Shown: piece after piece, positions 1-27,818 of the stretch
Position numbering within the stretch: the first letter of the stretch is position 1
Layout: the number at the start of each line of letters is the position of its first letter
DNA from: Burkholderiales bacterium
Lineage (GTDB): Bacteria > Vulcanimicrobiota > Xenobia > Xenobiales > Xenobiaceae
NCBI GenBank assembly: GCA_012799975.1
Contig: JAAZKF010000108.1
Span: 1-35,378 of the forward strand
Reading direction: 5' to 3'
DNA length: 35,378 bases
Notes under the pieces: model-generated
Told to the model about the DNA's origin: nothing
Database searches by the model: none
The model's input: only the letters and a program-made list of their open reading frames with translations
Translations under genes and position numbers: made by a program

Positions 1-25
1 CATTCGGCCGTCGATCCGTTGAGAC

Positions 26-51
26 CCCACCCACACCAGGGTGTGGGTGGG
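26..51 (+). terminator. GC-rich hairpin, possible terminator of an upstream off-window gene
   Basis: Bases 26-37 are the exact reverse complement of 40-51, with a loop of two to four bases. A TGA at 20-22 sits three bases before the stem, so bases 1-22 may be the last codons of a gene entering from the left; that is only a guess from 22 bases. There is no U-tract after the stem. The same arrangement (stop codon, then at once a perfect GC stem) is seen at 1830-1864, which supports a terminator role. The hairpin lies just outside the 87-192 repeat. Confidence 0.5.
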
Positions 52-86
52 AGGGGCCCGTCTGCGTCGTCAGGCGCACCTCTGCG

Positions 87-192
87 GTGCTCACGTAGTT
101 TCCAACTACGCTCCGCTCCTCGATGCCCGCCTTCCTGGCATCCAGACCCGCCTCGATGGCCTCGGTTCTCACGCCAGGCGGCGGATTCAGGC
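87..192 (+). repeat. 106-bp repeat, left copy (inverted copy at 35273-35378)
   Basis: These 106 bases match the reverse complement of 35273-35378 with only two differences (at 127 and at the A/G near 176). The match stops sharply at 192, where the flanks diverge. Inside the repeat, 94-100 and 104-110 form a 7-bp hairpin (CGTAGTT/AACTACG) with a three-base loop. I see no convincing protein. The conserved boundary and near identity over 35 kb point to a dispersed or recently copied element rather than chance. The left edge can be judged only to base 87, because the right copy is cut by the end of the window. Confidence 0.85.
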
Positions 193-205
193 AGGGTTTT
201 TCATC

Positions 206-235
206 TTGTTGCCACCGTTATCTTCGTGCTAGGAT
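206..235 (+). promoter_or_regulatory. Predicted promoter of the ModE-like operon, extended -10
   Basis: A TG at 227-228 precedes TAGGAT at 230-235, giving an extended -10 (TGnTAGGAT). A possible -35, TTGTTG, lies at 206-211 with an 18-base spacer; TTGCCA at 209-214 with 15 bases is the alternative. Transcription would start near 242, that is, at the ATG of the downstream gene at 243, so the mRNA would be leaderless or nearly so. The same spacing of seven bases between the -10 and the ATG is found at 12939-12952. Confidence 0.55.
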
Positions 236-240
236 AACGG
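215..240. promoter_or_regulatory. ModE-box-like palindromic operator
   Basis: CCGTTATC at 215-222 and GATAACGG at 233-240 are a perfect 8-bp inverted repeat around a 10-base spacer. Read as CGTTAT-N12-ATAACG, the half-sites and their spacing correspond to the E. coli modA ModE operator as I remember it. The palindrome covers the spacer and the -10 of the predicted promoter, a typical repressor position, and ends two bases before the ATG of a gene for a ModE-type DNA-binding protein. Autoregulation is inferred, not shown. Confidence 0.6.
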
Positions 241-242
241 AC

Positions 243-638
243 ATGCGCATCGAGGTGAAGGTGGCCCTGCTCGACTCGCAGGGCGAGCGCTTCATGGGGG
301 CGGGGCCCTTGTGGCTTCTGGAGGGGATCCGCCAGACGGGTTCCATCCGCCAGGCGGCCTTGGGTATGGGGATGTCGTACGCCAAGGCGCATCGCCTTTT
401 AGGGCGTCTGGAACAGGCTCTGGGAGTGCGTTTGCTTTCCCGGCGTATCGGGGGCGCCGAGCACGGGGGGGCGGGTCTGACGCCTGAAGGGGTCGAGTTC
501 CTCGAACGCTACACCCGGCTTTGTCAGACACTCCAGGCTCGGGCCCGGGAGGAGCAGGAGGCCTTCGGCGCGTTCTGCAGCGAGCTGGCTTCCCGCCAGG
601 CGCCCCTGGGGGCTGCGTCGGGGGAGGGCGGGGCGTGA
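243..638 (+). CDS. ModE-type winged-helix regulator lacking the molybdate-binding domain
   Basis: The 131-residue product is the N-terminal DNA-binding domain of the ModE family: an N-terminal strand region, a GSIRQAA helix-turn-helix around residues 30-60 (GMSYAKAHRLL recognition helix), a wing with SRRIGG and LTPEG, then a helical tail suited to dimerisation. Full ModE proteins have about 260 residues with two Mop-type oxyanion sites; these are absent, as in the short LysR/ModE-like regulators. I chose the ATG at 243 because family similarity starts with MRIEVKVALL and a promoter and operator abut it; a longer frame from 123 would run into the repeat. The stop overlaps the next start (GTGA), so the gene leads a three-gene operon and likely represses it through the palindrome at 215-240. 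The ligand, if any, is unknown. Confidence 0.75.
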   Translation: MRIEVKVALLDSQGERFMGAGPLWLLEGIRQTGSIRQAALGMGMSYAKAHRLLGRLEQALGVRLLSRRIGGAEHGGAGLTPEGVEFLERYTRLCQTLQARAREEQEAFGAFCSELASRQAPLGAASGEGGA

Positions 639-1222
639 GGCTGTTTTTTACGACCCGGGAGATGGCCACCCTGGCCATGCTGGTGGCCTGCAACGCGGCC
701 ATGGAGCTGACCCTGGGCAATCTTCTCCACGCCGTGCGTTCTCCCATGACCGGTTCCTTGCTGGTGGGCCTGAACCTGGTGGTCTACGCCATGGGCTACC
801 TGCGGGTTCCCCGCTTCGGGGCGATCCTGGTGATCGGGGTGGGGACGGCCTTCCTGAAGTTCGCCTTGGCGGGTTCCTTCAAGATGCTGGCCCTGCCGGC
901 CATCGTCCTGGAGGCGGCCCTTATCGATCTGCTGATCTCCCGCGGGGGCCTGAACAGGCTCACTTTGGTGCTCTCCGGGGTGATGGCCAGTATCTTCTCG
1001 CTGGGGTGGAGGCTGACCACGGCCTGGATCTTCGTCGGGATCGAGCCCGCGGTTACCCTGGCACGGTTGGTCCACGAGGACTTCGCGAGCAGGGTTCCCT
1101 TTCTGGGACTCCTGGGCGTGATGCTGGCCTCCCGGGCCCTGGCGGGGGGGCTCTTCGGCCTGTTGGCCTGGCGGGTCCTGGCCCTGGTGGAGTCGGCCCT
1201 GCACAGCGGGGCGGAGCCCTGA
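635..1222 (+). CDS. Integral membrane protein, ECF transporter S-component-like
   Basis: The 195-residue protein is almost wholly hydrophobic, with about five or six membrane helices. It opens with a TTREMATLAMLVACNAAMELTLGN stretch-like layout (residues 6-30) that recalls the first helix of energy-coupling factor substrate-binding subunits, which bind vitamins or metal ions in the membrane and pair with a shared EcfT/EcfA module. The GTG start at 635 overlaps the TGA of the regulator by four bases, indicating translational coupling. No ATPase or EcfT gene is present in the window, so a shared module elsewhere would be needed. The substrate is unknown; the ModE-like partner makes an oxyanion or a molybdenum-cofactor-related compound conceivable, but this is inference. 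A plain small-molecule permease is an alternative. Confidence 0.55.
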   Translation: MRLFFTTREMATLAMLVACNAAMELTLGNLLHAVRSPMTGSLLVGLNLVVYAMGYLRVPRFGAILVIGVGTAFLKFALAGSFKMLALPAIVLEAALIDLLISRGGLNRLTLVLSGVMASIFSLGWRLTTAWIFVGIEPAVTLARLVHEDFASRVPFLGLLGVMLASRALAGGLFGLLAWRVLALVESALHSGAEP

Positions 1223-1223
1223 G

Positions 1224-1832
1224 GTGCAGGGCATCCGGATCCTTCCCGCGATTTTGCCCCAGCGCGCCGACAGTGACTTCTGGGCCTGGGAGGAGCGCTA
1301 CGCCGCACCGCGCCGCCGCCCGCGTGGTCCATCGGGCTGGCTGGTGACCCACGTGGATCGTCTGCCGGGGGGGCGGGCCCTGGACGTGGCCATGGGGGAG
1401 GGGCGCAACGCCCTGTTCCTGGCCCGGCGGGGCTTCGAGGTGACGGGGGTGGACCGCTCGCCGATGGCCTTGCGCACGGCTCGAGCCCGGGCCCGGGAGG
1501 AGGGGCTGGAACTCGATCTCCACCTGGCCGATCTCGAAGCCTGCGAGTTGCCCGCCGGTCCCTTCCAGGTAGTGGTGGTGATGCGTTATCTGCAGCGCAG
1601 CCTCTTCGCGCCGCTGGGACGGGCTTTGGCCCCGGGCGGGGTCCTGCTCTATGAGAGCTTCACCCGGGACTATCTGAAGTACGGGCCCCGGAATCCGGAA
1701 CATCTGCTGCGACCAGGCGAGCTGTGTGAAGCCTTCCGCGACCTGGAAATCCTCGACTATCGCGAGACGGAGGACCCCGAGCGCCGCGAGGTACGGGCCA
1801 GCCTGCTGGCCCGCAAACCCTTCGTCCCTTGA
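1224..1832 (+). CDS. Class I SAM-dependent methyltransferase, TehB-like
   Basis: The 202-residue product has a Rossmann methyltransferase core: motif I DVAMGEGRN at residues 54-62 for S-adenosylmethionine, the acidic residue D77 in VTGVD that should bind the ribose, and a motif IV region near LADLEA. A YESFTRDYLKYGPRNPEHLL segment-like pattern and a terminal LLARKP resemble the TehB/tellurite-resistance-like branch of small methyltransferases. The methyl acceptor cannot be read from the sequence. The GTG start at 1224 lies one base after the stop of the membrane protein, with GGAG at 1213-1216 as ribosome site, so it is the third gene of the operon. A hairpin follows the stop directly. Confidence 0.7.
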   Translation: MQGIRILPAILPQRADSDFWAWEERYAAPRRRPRGPSGWLVTHVDRLPGGRALDVAMGEGRNALFLARRGFEVTGVDRSPMALRTARARAREEGLELDLHLADLEACELPAGPFQVVVVMRYLQRSLFAPLGRALAPGGVLLYESFTRDYLKYGPRNPEHLLRPGELCEAFRDLEILDYRETEDPERREVRASLLARKPFVP

Positions 1833-23484: not shown

Positions 23485-26475
23485 TCAGTCTACGCCTGCC
23501 TGGCCGGCCGGCAGAAGCCAGGCATGGTCGGTCAGCACGGCCCAGAGTATCTTCTCCAGAGCCGGGTCGATTCCGGGATCGGTCTCTTCGAGGTCCACCT
23601 CACGGGTCTGCTCGACCCGCAGGCGGAACCTCTTGCCGCCCAGGTGGTAGAAACCTGGCACGGCACTCTCCTCGAATTCTTTCTCGGTCGAGAAGAGGGT
23701 CAACTTCTCGAGGTAGGGGGAACTGTCGTAGGGGCAGAAGGCCGTGCAGTTCCCGCACTCGTTGCACATCCGGTCGATGTGCAGGATCTGTGGGTTCTTC
23801 AAACCCTTGACGGTCAGCGACACGTAGGCCCGGTTGGGACAGACCTGGACGCAGTTTTCGCAGATATCCCCACATTGCAGGCAGCGCTCGACTTCCCTGG
23901 AGCTGTCGTCATACAGTTTCAGGACTCCGCGTTTGGAGTGGCAGTCGCTGGTGCAGCCCGGGACTGAGTGGGTATAGGGGCCGGCGATGGCGTCGACCAC
24001 GCGGCGGGCATCGGCGATGGCCTCGACGATGGTGGCCGGGCCCAGGTGGGCGTCGCCAGCCACATAGACCCCGGGGACCGAGGTCTCCAGCGTCGCCGGG
24101 TTGACCTGCACTCGGCCTTTGTCGGTCATGGCCAGTCCGTTGGCTTGGAAGAAGCGGGAATCCACCTTCTCTCCGACGGCGGCGATCAGCGTGGTGCAGG
24201 GGAGCGAGACGGTCAGGTCGGTCTCCAGCGGAGTCCGCCGGCCGCTGTCATCCGGCGGGCCCAGCACCATCCTGCGGCACAGGAGCTTTTCATCCTCCCA
24301 GGAGATCGGGGCCAGAAGTTCCAGGAACTCGACTCCGTCCGCCAGCGCCAGGTGCAGTTCTTCCTCGTCGGCGGGCATGAAGCGCCGGGTCCGGCGGTAC
24401 ACCACCCGCGCACGCTGGACTCCCGGGGTCCTCTTGGCAGCTCGGGCAGCGTCCATGGCGGTATTCCCGCCTCCGATGACCAGCACGTCGGTCCCCAGGT
24501 CTTCGAGGGTCCCCGCCCGGTGGCGCTGGAGGAAGTCGATCACGTTGAGGGGTTCGCCTTGCTCCAGGGACAGGATTCCCGGGACCTGAGCACCCACGGT
24601 TAGGACCACGTGGGTGAACCCCTGGTCTTTGAGTTTTTGCACCCCGGGGGCCTCCTGGCCGGTCTGCACCTCGATTCCCATTTTCTGCATCAGGGCTACA
24701 TCGCAGTCCACGCTCTGGCTTGGGACGCGGAATTCCGGGACCACGTAGCGCACGATGCCGCCCAGTTGCTCCTGCTTTTCGAAGAGGGTAACCGGGACTC
24801 CCTGGCGGCCCAGGAAGAAGGCCGTCGACATCCCGGCCGGGCCTCCGCCCACCACGGCTACCCGATGTGGGGAAGTCTTGGGGGGAGTGGTGAGCTCGGC
24901 CATGAGCGCTTCGAAGCCGGCCTTGGCGGCCTGCAGTTTGACGTTGCGGATATATACGGGCTCTTCATAGAAGTTGCGTGTGCATTTGTCCATGCAGCGG
25001 TGGTTGCAGACCGTTCCGGTCATGAACGGCAAAGGGTTTTTCTCGATGATCAAGCGCAGAGAAGCCAGGGCGTCCCCTTTCCCGAAGAGTTCGATGTATC
25101 CCGGGATGTCCTGGTGGATCGGGCAGCCGTGGGTGCAGGGAGCGGTGAAACAGTCGACCAGTGGCACCTTGGTATCCAGCTTGCGCCGAGGAGCCGGCTT
25201 GAGGGCTTTGAGGTGCTGGGGATCGTGGAGGGCCTGCTCGGCCAGCCGGGTGACCCGTCCCACGGAGACGCCCTGGAAGGGCAGGATCGTCCGAGCGGAC
25301 AAGGCTCGGGCCATCTGGATGAAGCGCTCATAGCCGCCGGGCTTGAGCAGGGTGGTGGCCATGGTTACCGGCCAGATGCCGGCCGAGACCAGACCCTCGA
25401 TGTTGAAGGCCTCGACGCCGCCCGAGAACGACAGACGCATCTGGCCATCGAAATCCTGGCTGATGCGGCGGGCCAGTTCCATGGTCAGCGGGTACAGTGA
25501 GCGGCCGCTCATGTACATCTCTTCGCCCGGCAGCTCGCCCCGGGTGATGCTGACCGGGAACGTGTTGGTCAGCTTCAGCCCGAAGGTCAGGCGGTTCTCG
25601 ATGGCCAGTTCCTGAAGGCGTCGGAACATGGGCACTGCGTCGCGGTACTGCAGATCGTTGTTGAAGTGGAAATCGTCGAAGACCAGGTAGTCGTAGCCCA
25701 TCCGGTCCAGGGTGCGGCGGGCGAAGTCATAACCCAGCATCGTCGGGTTGCACTTGACGAAGGTGTGCAGTTTCTTGGCGCGGATCAGCCAGACGGCGAT
25801 CCGCTCGATCTCCTGGGGAGGGCATCCGTGCAGCGTGGACAGGGTGATGGAGGTGCATACCCTGGGCGAGATGCCCGCCAGATACTCCTCGTCTACCCGC
25901 TCGAAACAATCCAGGTTGGCTCGGGCCCAGGCCAGGCACTCTGTCCAGATGGGGGTGGCACTGGCGTTCTTGAGGCCTTCGATGAAGGTGTCGATCTTCT
26001 CCGAGGTGATGCCCTCGTAGTTGTAGCCCACGCTCATGTTGAAGATGAACCCGTCGGGATGACCCCAGCCGAACTCGTGACTCAGCAGTTTCAGGGCAAA
26101 CCAGGCCTTGACATACTCGTCGAAGGCCTCCTGGACTCGCAGTTCGGTGGACCACTCGACGTTGTAGCACTCGTCTTCGGCCAGGATGCAGGGTTTGGAG
26201 ACAGGCAGGTCCTCTCCGTCCAGGGTCTGCACGGTCTTGAGTTCGAAGAAGCGAGCTCCGGCGTAGTAGGCTGACAGGATGTTCTGGGCCAGTTGGGTGT
26301 GGGGGCCCGCCGCGGGTCCGAAGGGCGTCTCGAGGTGCTCGCCAAAGAGTTGCAGACTCTCCCCTGGAGGGGCGACGAAGCCATTGTGCAGGGCGAAGAA
26401 GGTGCCCTGCTTCCTCTCCTCGAGGATCCAGCGCATAAGTTCAGGGAAGGGGATGGGTGTCATGCGATCGGACAT
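23485..26475 (-). CDS. ygfK: YgfK, multidomain iron-sulfur flavoprotein (putative selenate reductase subunit family)
   Basis: The 996-residue protein has the full YgfK architecture. An N-terminal TIM-barrel, dihydroorotate dehydrogenase-like domain (1 to about 430) comes first, then a cysteine block CTAPCTHGCPIHQDIP (from Cys447) as in glutamate synthase small subunits. An FAD Rossmann motif (GGGPAG near 542) and an NAD(P) motif (GGGNTAMDAA near 668) follow, and a C-terminal ferredoxin pair with CLQCGDICENC (about 864) and CNECGNCTAFCP (about 904). It should pass electrons from NAD(P)H through flavin and iron-sulfur centres. In E. coli and gut anaerobes it sits with ssnA and xanthine dehydrogenase-like genes in loci for anaerobic purine breakdown; the selenate-reductase name is historical. 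GAGGAGG is nine bases before the ATG and overlaps the ssnA stop region, so the pair is coupled. Confidence 0.93.
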   Translation of the reverse strand: MSDRMTPIPFPELMRWILEERKQGTFFALHNGFVAPPGESLQLFGEHLETPFGPAAGPHTQLAQNILSAYYAGARFFELKTVQTLDGEDLPVSKPCILAEDECYNVEWSTELRVQEAFDEYVKAWFALKLLSHEFGWGHPDGFIFNMSVGYNYEGITSEKIDTFIEGLKNASATPIWTECLAWARANLDCFERVDEEYLAGISPRVCTSITLSTLHGCPPQEIERIAVWLIRAKKLHTFVKCNPTMLGYDFARRTLDRMGYDYLVFDDFHFNNDLQYRDAVPMFRRLQELAIENRLTFGLKLTNTFPVSITRGELPGEEMYMSGRSLYPLTMELARRISQDFDGQMRLSFSGGVEAFNIEGLVSAGIWPVTMATTLLKPGGYERFIQMARALSARTILPFQGVSVGRVTRLAEQALHDPQHLKALKPAPRRKLDTKVPLVDCFTAPCTHGCPIHQDIPGYIELFGKGDALASLRLIIEKNPLPFMTGTVCNHRCMDKCTRNFYEEPVYIRNVKLQAAKAGFEALMAELTTPPKTSPHRVAVVGGGPAGMSTAFFLGRQGVPVTLFEKQEQLGGIVRYVVPEFRVPSQSVDCDVALMQKMGIEVQTGQEAPGVQKLKDQGFTHVVLTVGAQVPGILSLEQGEPLNVIDFLQRHRAGTLEDLGTDVLVIGGGNTAMDAARAAKRTPGVQRARVVYRRTRRFMPADEEELHLALADGVEFLELLAPISWEDEKLLCRRMVLGPPDDSGRRTPLETDLTVSLPCTTLIAAVGEKVDSRFFQANGLAMTDKGRVQVNPATLETSVPGVYVAGDAHLGPATIVEAIADARRVVDAIAGPYTHSVPGCTSDCHSKRGVLKLYDDSSREVERCLQCGDICENCVQVCPNRAYVSLTVKGLKNPQILHIDRMCNECGNCTAFCPYDSSPYLEKLTLFSTEKEFEESAVPGFYHLGGKRFRLRVEQTREVDLEETDPGIDPALEKILWAVLTDHAWLLPAGQAGVD

Positions 26476-26489
26476 AAAAATGATCCTCC

Positions 26490-27818
26490 TCAGCCGTTGA
26501 TGGAATTCCAGAGCTTCAGGGCGCTCTCACGGCAGCGGGCCATCAGGTCCGCCTCATCGGTCACCAGGATCTGTCGGTCGCGCATGAGGATCTTGCCGTT
26601 GCACACTGTGCTGGTCACGTAGCGACCGTTCATGCCGAAGAGGATGTGCCCGTTGCAGTTGGCTCCGTTCATCGGTGTGAGGGGGTCGTAATCGGTCACG
26701 ATCACGTCGGCATAGGCTCCGGGCTTCAGGACGCCCAGGGGCTTGTTGAAGAAGCGTCCGGCGATTCGGGCGTTGTTCTCGAAGAGCATGGTCGGGATTT
26801 CGGCCCAGGCCACGGTGGGGTCACACAGGTGGTGCTTGTGGATCAGGTTGCCCACCTTGTAGCTTTCCAGCATGTCCGAGGTGTAGCCGTCGGTGCCCAG
26901 TCCGATCAGGACTCCGGCTTTGAAGAGATTCAGGACGGGGCCACAACCGACCGCGTTGCCCATATTCGACTCGGGGTTGTGGACGACCATCGTGTCGGTG
27001 GCCTTCAGCAACTCGATCTCGGCGCGGTTGACATGGACGCAGTGGATGGCCAGGGTCTTGGGACCCAGGATCCCGGCATCGAAGAGGCGCTGGACGATCC
27101 GCTTGCTGAAGCGCTGGAGCGAATCCTGCAGGTCGCCGGGGCCCTCGGCCACGTGGATGTGGTAGCCTGCCTCGCGACCCTGGTGCTCGGCGCAGAAGGC
27201 CAGCGTTTCATCGCTCAGGGTGAAAGCGGCGTGCAGGCCCATCATGCCTTTGAGCATGTCGGTGTCGTCGGCAGCCGCGCGTTGGATGAAGCGCTCGTTC
27301 TCCAGCACGGCCTCCTTCATCTTGGCCTCGCCGTCACGGTCCGAGACCTCATAGCAAAGGCAGGTGCGCACTCCGTACTCCCCGGCGGGCCGGGCGATCA
27401 TGTCCAGCGAGCCGGGAATCTCGTGGTAGGAGGCGTGGTGGTCGAATACCGTGGTGACACCGTTCTTGATGCAGTCCAGGTAGGTCGCGCAGGCCGAGAG
27501 GTGGGTGTTCTCCAGGGTCAACTGCCGGTCGAGCCTCCACCACATCCCCTCCAGGATGTCGTTGAAGTTCTTCGGATTATAGCCATCGATCGACAGCCCC
27601 CGGGCAAACGCGCTGTAGATGTGGTGGTGCGTGTTGATCAGACCCGGCATGATCGTACCGCCTCGAGCGTCCAGGAACTCCGCGTGGGGGTATTTCTGCC
27701 GCAAGGCGACGGTGGTGCCTACCTCCTGGATGAGGTTTCCCTCGATGACGACGGCTCCGTCGTCGAAGAAGCCTCCGTCGTCACGGGTGATGAGCCTGCC
27801 GTTGCCAATAAGTAACAT
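26490..27818 (-). CDS. ssnA: SsnA-type amidohydrolase (putative aminohydrolase)
   Basis: The 442-residue enzyme belongs to the metal-dependent amidohydrolase superfamily, close to guanine deaminase and chlorohydrolases. The metal ligands are visible: His64/His66 in NTHHH, His222 in HIHVAEG, His259 or His262 in IHCVHVN, and Asp310 in GLGTDG. It should hydrolyse an amidine, amine or ring bond of a purine-derived or similar substrate in the cytoplasm. In E. coli ssnA adjoins ygfK and xdhD; here it precedes ygfK by 14 bases, the first gene of a two-gene operon. AAGGGG lies eight bases before the ATG at 27818. No xanthine dehydrogenase, YgfM or selenium-insertion gene is present in the window. Confidence 0.92.
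   Translation of the reverse strand: MLLIGNGRLITRDDGGFFDDGAVVIEGNLIQEVGTTVALRQKYPHAEFLDARGGTIMPGLINTHHHIYSAFARGLSIDGYNPKNFNDILEGMWWRLDRQLTLENTHLSACATYLDCIKNGVTTVFDHHASYHEIPGSLDMIARPAGEYGVRTCLCYEVSDRDGEAKMKEAVLENERFIQRAAADDTDMLKGMMGLHAAFTLSDETLAFCAEHQGREAGYHIHVAEGPGDLQDSLQRFSKRIVQRLFDAGILGPKTLAIHCVHVNRAEIELLKATDTMVVHNPESNMGNAVGCGPVLNLFKAGVLIGLGTDGYTSDMLESYKVGNLIHKHHLCDPTVAWAEIPTMLFENNARIAGRFFNKPLGVLKPGAYADVIVTDYDPLTPMNGANCNGHILFGMNGRYVTSTVCNGKILMRDRQILVTDEADLMARCRESALKLWNSING

What the first reader, a model, noticed from the sequence alone, without database searches (positions are those of the whole stretch)
206..242. ModE-box-like palindrome over an extended -10, before a ModE-like gene without a molybdate domain
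The 8-bp palindrome reads CGTTAT-N12-ATAACG, the half-site and spacing I recall for E. coli ModE. It overlaps the predicted promoter of a gene that encodes only the ModE DNA-binding domain. The site appears conserved although the effector domain is lost, so the regulator may respond to something else or act constitutively.
Basis: partly seen in the sequence, partly recalled or inferred. Interest (0 to 1): 0.62.

Follow-up and report, generated by a model that had tools for sequence, protein, structure and literature searches.

The report
Autoregulatory ModE box, single-domain ModE gene
A short molybdenum-type gene switch in an uncultured anaerobic bacterium has the classic ModE binding site over its own promoter; the site is conserved in most relatives, and the switch always sits next to a small membrane protein that may be part of a transporter.

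Summary
Window 215-240 is CCGTTATC-N10-GATAACGG, an exact CGTTAT-N12-ATAACG. It is the only exact copy in the 3.65 Mb genome (0.04 expected) and lies directly before a 131-aa gene encoding only a ModE DNA-binding domain. It is not chance. In three same-genus genomes it is 92% identical while the flanking upstream sequence is at random level (24-34%). An exact copy precedes the orthologue in another genus, and an 11/12 copy in a third. In that third genus, ModE-consensus palindromes also precede a Moco-biosynthesis/modABC operon in both genomes. The best reading is an autoregulatory ModE operator bound by the single-domain ModE. Its targets are itself and a conserved, co-transcribed membrane protein that weakly resembles ECF-transporter S components (pair conserved in 8/8 family genomes).

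In the window's genus the identified molybdenum genes carry no box, so the regulon appears narrowed to this operon. Single-domain ModE is not new (Desulfovibrio; PDB 2IJL). The effector, binding and direction of control are untested.

In passing: window 1-191 is part of a 214-bp MITE-like repeat (22-bp inverted ends, 5-bp target duplications), with at least 40 copies in this genome.

The parts
215..240 (.). ModE-box palindrome CCGTTATC-TTCGTGCTAG-GATAACGG; core CGTTAT-N12-ATAACG at 216-239
   Evidence: conserved in orthologues; only exact copy in the genome
206..211 (+). weak -35-like TTGTTG, about 18 nt before the -10
   Evidence: Direct reading; not found by the sigma-70 scan; not conserved in G001-G003
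227..235 (+). extended -10 candidate TG-C-TAGGAT inside the palindrome (TGCTAAGAT in G001-G003)
   Evidence: Direct reading. It would start transcription at about 241-243, i.e. at the ATG (leaderless or near-leaderless mRNA; inferred)
243..638 (+). single-domain ModE-type regulator, 131 aa, no TOBE/Mop domain
635..1222 (+). small membrane protein, ECF-transporter S-component-like (weak family evidence); start overlaps the modE stop by 4 nt (GTGA)
   Evidence: next to modE in 8/8 family genomes
1224..1832 (+). SAM-dependent methyltransferase (TehB-like), likely third gene of the operon, found next to the pair only in the window's genus
1..191 (+). dispersed MITE-like repeat (214 bp full length, left 23 bp lost at the contig end) inserted directly upstream of the promoter; not part of the regulatory system but its neighbour

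Best explanation
The palindrome is the operator of a ModE-family, DNA-binding-domain-only regulator. A dimer of the 131-aa protein binds CGTTAT-N12-ATAACG, which covers the -10 and the start region of its own promoter, and blocks RNA polymerase. It thus autoregulates a short operon: regulator, ECF-S-like membrane protein and, in this genus, a methyltransferase. In a sister genus the same regulator type also appears to govern Moco/molybdate genes; in the window's genus its recognisable regulon has shrunk to this operon. Shown: site, uniqueness, conservation beyond flanking sequence, position over the start region, the conserved gene pair, lack of a sensor domain, and boxes before moa-mod operons in relatives. 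Inferred: binding, dimerisation, repression rather than activation, and the ECF-S identity. Unknown: the effector.
For: Exact site, unique in the genome. Box 92-100% identical among four same-genus genomes against 24-34% for G000 versus the others just upstream. Exact copy at -43 in G005, another genus, with an unrelated spacer and flanks, and 11/12 at -45 in G007. CGNTAT-N12-ATANCG in eight family genomes: 11 sites against 6 for the reversed-pattern control. Five of the 11 lie before modE-like, moa-mod or Se/Mo-hydroxylase-associated genes. G004 CGATATATTTTTAATTATATAACG, 15/16 to the extended E. coli consensus, lies about 31 nt before MoeA-like/moaA/MOSC/mog/modA/moaC/modB/modC; G007 has the dyad CGATAT-N12-ATATCG about 44 nt before the same operon. 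The distant relative G088 has CGCTAT-N12-ATAGCG before modE-modA. One P0001-type match per family genome, so it is the only ModE-type candidate binder found. Family profile matches PDB 2IJL, 1O7L and 1B9M.
Against: G004 and G006 have no good box before modE. In the window only the outer CGTTAT/ATAACG agrees with the E. coli consensus; of the inner TATATA positions 1 of 6 agrees. The -35 is poor, so the promoter itself is a guess. The window protein scores below the TIGR00637 curated cut-off. No binding or expression data exist.
Confidence: 0.72

Rival explanations
1. The conserved block is only a promoter (extended -10 plus leaderless start) and the dyad is incidental.
For: The block coincides with the -10 and the start codon, and the conserved stretch includes the spacer TTCGTGCTA.
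Against: An exact 12/12 dyad recurs in G005 with a different spacer and distance to the start; ModE-consensus dyads precede moa-mod in G004 and G007.
Confidence: 0.08
2. The regulator still reports molybdate or tungstate, sensed by a partner protein (a ModC TOBE domain or a stand-alone Mop) rather than its own domain.
For: Boxes before moa-mod operons in G004/G007 and before a double-cubane-reductase/EF2568-type cluster in G007. PMC545781 notes that Desulfovibrio has ModE DNA-binding-only proteins and separate chimeric Mop proteins.
Against: The only TOBE hit in G000 belongs to a MalK-type sugar ABC ATPase. In the window's genus the molybdenum genes lack boxes. G005 and G006 have the modE pair but no detected MoaC, MoeA_N or ModA; these are incomplete genomes.
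Confidence: 0.35
3. The protein is an effector-free autoregulator that merely sets the level of the operon.
For: No sensor domain in any family member; the box is unique and autogenous in G000.
Against: Sister-genus boxes at Moco/molybdate genes would make little sense without a signal.
Confidence: 0.3
4. The site is an activator site, or is used by another transcription factor.
For: E. coli ModE activates moa (PMC2408646) as well as repressing mod (PMC11980592).
Against: The site overlaps the -10 and start, a repressor position; no second ModE-type protein was found.
Confidence: 0.12

Closest known systems
E. coli ModE and its operators (modA, moaA)
   Same: Homologous DNA-binding domain; CGNTAT-N12-ATANCG site; operator over a promoter; mod and moa targets in a sister genus
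   Different: No di-Mop molybdate-sensing domain; in the window's genus the box precedes only the regulator's own operon; partner is an ECF-S-like membrane protein, not ModABC
DNA-binding-only ModE of Desulfovibrio (PMC545781) and the single-domain protein PDB 2IJL
   Same: Single ModE DNA-binding domain (2IJL: 135 aa)
   Different: Desulfovibrio was assigned a different box (CGGTCACG-N14-CGTGACCG); here the E. coli-type box is kept
ECF transporter S components (PF09819 ABC_cobalt; Trep_Strep/MptD family)
   Same: Size of about 190 aa, helical membrane protein, weak family matches in several homologues; EcfT/CbiQ-type proteins present in the genomes
   Different: The window protein itself matches no family; substrate unknown; coupled to a ModE-type regulator

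Membership tests
ModE box (E. coli type) | CGNTAT-N12-ATANCG dyad | tested here: met
   Exact
ModE box (E. coli type) | Inner TATATA-N6-TATATA positions | tested here: not met
   1 of 6 inner positions agrees in the window; 5 of 6 at the G004 moa-mod and G007 double-cubane sites
ModE box (E. coli type) | Conserved upstream of orthologues or molybdenum genes | tested here: met
   6 of 8 modE promoters at 11/12 or better, plus 2 moa-mod operons
ModE regulator | N-terminal ModE winged-helix domain | tested here: met
   TIGR00637 is the best NCBIfam hit of the window protein and matches 8/8 members, though below the curated cut-off for the window protein; profile hits 2IJL, 1O7L, 1B9M
ModE regulator | C-terminal di-Mop/TOBE molybdate-binding domain | tested here: not met
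   Protein ends after the DNA-binding domain
ModE regulator | Molybdate-dependent DNA binding | not testable with these tools
   Needs purified protein
ECF transporter S component (second gene) | Match to an S-component family | tested here: inconclusive
   PF09819 in 6/8 family members at a loose threshold (best 9e-4) and 1.7e-7 in a wider relative; Trep_Strep 1.3e-4; none for the window protein
ECF transporter S component (second gene) | Six-helix S-component fold | tested here: inconclusive
   Six helices predicted but mean pLDDT 43.6, not usable

The most novel reading that the evidence does not exclude
A ModE-type regulator has been detached from molybdenum: a sensorless ModE domain and its ancestral box now run a two-gene unit with an ECF-type uptake protein, kept even in genomes where no Moco or molybdate-transport genes were detected (G005, G006). 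This would imply either a new ECF-type oxyanion/cofactor importer or a reassigned ModE switch.
Probability: 0.25. Interest if true: 0.6.

Novelty: new variant of a known kind. Interest (0 to 1): 0.42.

Why it matters
It extends the E. coli-type ModE operator to the uncultured class UBP9 (Eremiobacterota), paired with a regulator that has no molybdate-binding domain, and shows the regulon differing between genera: moa-mod in one, only itself plus a putative transporter in another. It makes two questions directly testable: how a ModE without a sensor domain is controlled, and what the conserved partner membrane protein imports.

Tried and rejected
A chance palindrome was rejected by uniqueness and by conservation against flanks. 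The 1-mismatch site at G000:C376:7743 lies inside a glycosyltransferase-like reading frame and was rejected as an operator. The 3-mismatch second site in the window (31227) is at chance level. Several other strict sites in relatives (G006:C52 and C69, G005:C300, G007:C62 and C91, G001:C251) lie inside reading frames or have no molybdenum context. MoeA_N absence was first taken as absence of Moco synthesis, then dropped because G004/G007 have a MoeA-like protein that this model misses; MoaC was used instead. Profiles of the membrane protein found no PDB relative. No Rfam family in the window. The mapping of box to gene in G066 and G140 is unclear and is not used as evidence.

Full report
What is there. 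The window is contig C336 of a 452-contig draft genome (G000, 3.65 Mb). Its nearest named relatives are UBP9 MAGs. UBP9 is the basal, apparently strictly anaerobic class of Ca. Eremiobacterota (PMC6664022). At 215-240 lies CCGTTATC-TTCGTGCTAG-GATAACGG: two perfect 8-bp arms and a 10-nt spacer, i.e. an exact CGTTAT-N12-ATAACG. It contains an extended -10 candidate, TG-C-TAGGAT at 227-235, and ends 2 nt before the ATG at 243. Transcription from that -10 would start at about 241-243, so the mRNA would be leaderless or nearly so. That is an inference: the -35 is weak and a consensus scan finds no promoter. In the window AGGA at 231-234 could also serve as a ribosome-binding site, but it is AAGA in G001-G003.

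The gene. 243-638 encodes 131 aa. Its best NCBIfam match is TIGR00637, the ModE repressor domain (5.7e-14, below the curated cut-off), and the protein stops after that domain. A profile of eight family members matches PDB 2IJL, a 135-aa single-domain protein (9e-16), and E. coli ModE 1O7L/1B9M (4.5e-10), over the DNA-binding domain. One such gene was found per family genome.

Is the site more than chance? With 3 mismatches allowed, no. As an exact site, yes: 0.04 expected and 1 observed in the genome, 2e-6 in the 200 nt before one gene. In G001, G002 and G003 (same genus) the site reads CGTTCTCTTCGTGCTAAGATAACG at the same distance; the -28..-3 block is 92% identical to the window and 100% identical among the three. 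The preceding 50 nt are 24-34% identical between G000 and the others. In G005 (another genus) an exact CGTTAT-N12-ATAACG with an unrelated spacer lies at -43; in G007 CGTTAT-N12-ATCACG lies at -45; G004 and G006 have none close to modE.

The regulon in relatives. In G004 the site CGATATATTTTTAATTATATAACG (15/16 to the extended E. coli consensus) lies about 31 nt before an operon of MoeA-like, moaA, MOSC, mog, modA, moaC, modB and modC. In G007 the dyad CGATAT-N12-ATATCG lies about 44 nt before the same operon. G007 has a third site, CGTTATATTCTAATTTATATACCG (15/16), before a double-cubane reductase, activase and EF2568-family cysteine desulfurase cluster. EF2568 belongs to the gene set associated with selenium-dependent molybdenum hydroxylases (PMC2276186). 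Over eight genomes CGNTAT-N12-ATANCG occurs 11 times against 6 for the reversed control; five of the 11 are the three sites just named plus those before modE in G000 and G005. A distant relative, G088, has CGCTAT-N12-ATAGCG before modE-modA. This is how ModE sites behave.

The regulon in the window's genus. The ModA-like transporter (58 bits, just below the TIGR01256 cut-off) in G000 and G002 and the moeA-moaC region in G001 and G002 have no box within 2 mismatches; nor does the G000 moeA contig within 3. In G002 the transporter lies next to a helix-turn-helix plus PBP_like regulator (PF12727), the architecture described for TaoR (PMC11980592). So the only recognisable ModE-type site in G000 is autogenous. 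moaC was not found in G000 itself but is present in its three same-genus relatives, so this is probably an assembly gap.

The partner. The second gene (635-1222) overlaps the modE stop by 4 nt. A homologue follows the modE-like gene in all eight family genomes, while the wider neighbourhood differs between genera. More distant homologues occur without a ModE neighbour in nine other genomes of the phylum. Several homologues weakly match ECF S-component families (PF09819 best 1.7e-7; Trep_Strep 1.3e-4), the window protein none. CbiQ/EcfT-type proteins exist in all eight genomes. The predicted structure is not usable (pLDDT 43.6). The S-component label is therefore a lead. G005 and G006 keep the pair although MoaC, MoeA_N and ModA were not detected there; these drafts are 71% and 88% complete.

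How it most likely works. A dimer of the single-domain protein binds the two half-sites across the -10 and start region and excludes polymerase, giving negative autoregulation of the operon. Site, position and conservation are shown; binding, dimerisation and sign are inferred; the effector is unknown. The only TOBE hit in G000 is in a MalK-type ATPase, so no dedicated molybdate-binding partner was found, although divergent TOBE domains would be missed.

Comparison. The box is E. coli-type (consensus quoted in PMC545781). Single-domain ModE proteins are known: PMC545781 reports them in Desulfovibrio with a different box and leaves their sensing mechanism open. What seems new is the E. coli-type box kept with a single-domain ModE in a two-gene unit with an S-component-like membrane protein, and the narrowed regulon. 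My literature access was partial: the main paper on ModE-site conservation (Studholme and Pau 2003, PMC317290) was not held.

Neighbouring repeat. Window 1-191 is the right part of a 214-bp repeat with 22-bp inverted ends (CCTGAATCCGCCGCCTGGCGTG and its complement). Clear 5-bp duplications flank several copies, e.g. CCAGA, TTGGA, TTGTA, TAGGA, ATGAG. More decayed copies and fragments occur in G001-G003, and none in the six more distant relatives searched: four of the family, one of the order, one of the class. It ends 23 nt before the palindrome, which helps to explain why nothing upstream of the box is conserved in G000.

Noticed in passing
window 1-191; copies L140-L159: MITE-like element, 214 bp, 22-bp terminal inverted repeats, 5-bp target duplications, at least 40 copies at 92-99% identity in this genome (306 first-look candidates), more decayed in the three same-genus genomes, absent from the other relatives searched; inserted 23 nt upstream of the ModE box and cut by the contig end.
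   Followed up: partly
window 23485-27818 (-): ygfK (TIGR03315, 1309 bits) and ssnA (TIGR03314), adjacent; the pair that PMC12507026 shows to catalyse reductive dearomatisation and ring opening in anaerobic urate degradation. No ModE box nearby.
   Followed up: partly
L107 646-669 and 716-4255 (G007:C99): Strong ModE-type site (15/16) 46 nt before a double-cubane-cluster reductase, its activase and an EF2568-family cysteine desulfurase: a possible new ModE target.
   Followed up: partly
L108 5041-9698 (G002:C20); L083 (G000:C82): Divergent ModA-like ABC transporter; in G002 it lies next to a helix-turn-helix/PBP_like (TaoR-type) regulator. No ModE box.
   Followed up: partly
L130 (G021:C70): The S-component-like homologue lies close to genes that look like xanthine-dehydrogenase-type Mo-binding and FAD subunits (by eye), without a ModE neighbour.
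   Followed up: no
L126, L129 (G026, G033): S-component-like homologue followed by a kinase-like gene (by eye) in two different families; possible substrate clue.
   Followed up: no
L028, L029 (G005, G006): modE plus membrane-protein pair kept although MoaC, MoeA_N and ModA were not detected in these (incomplete) genomes.
   Followed up: partly
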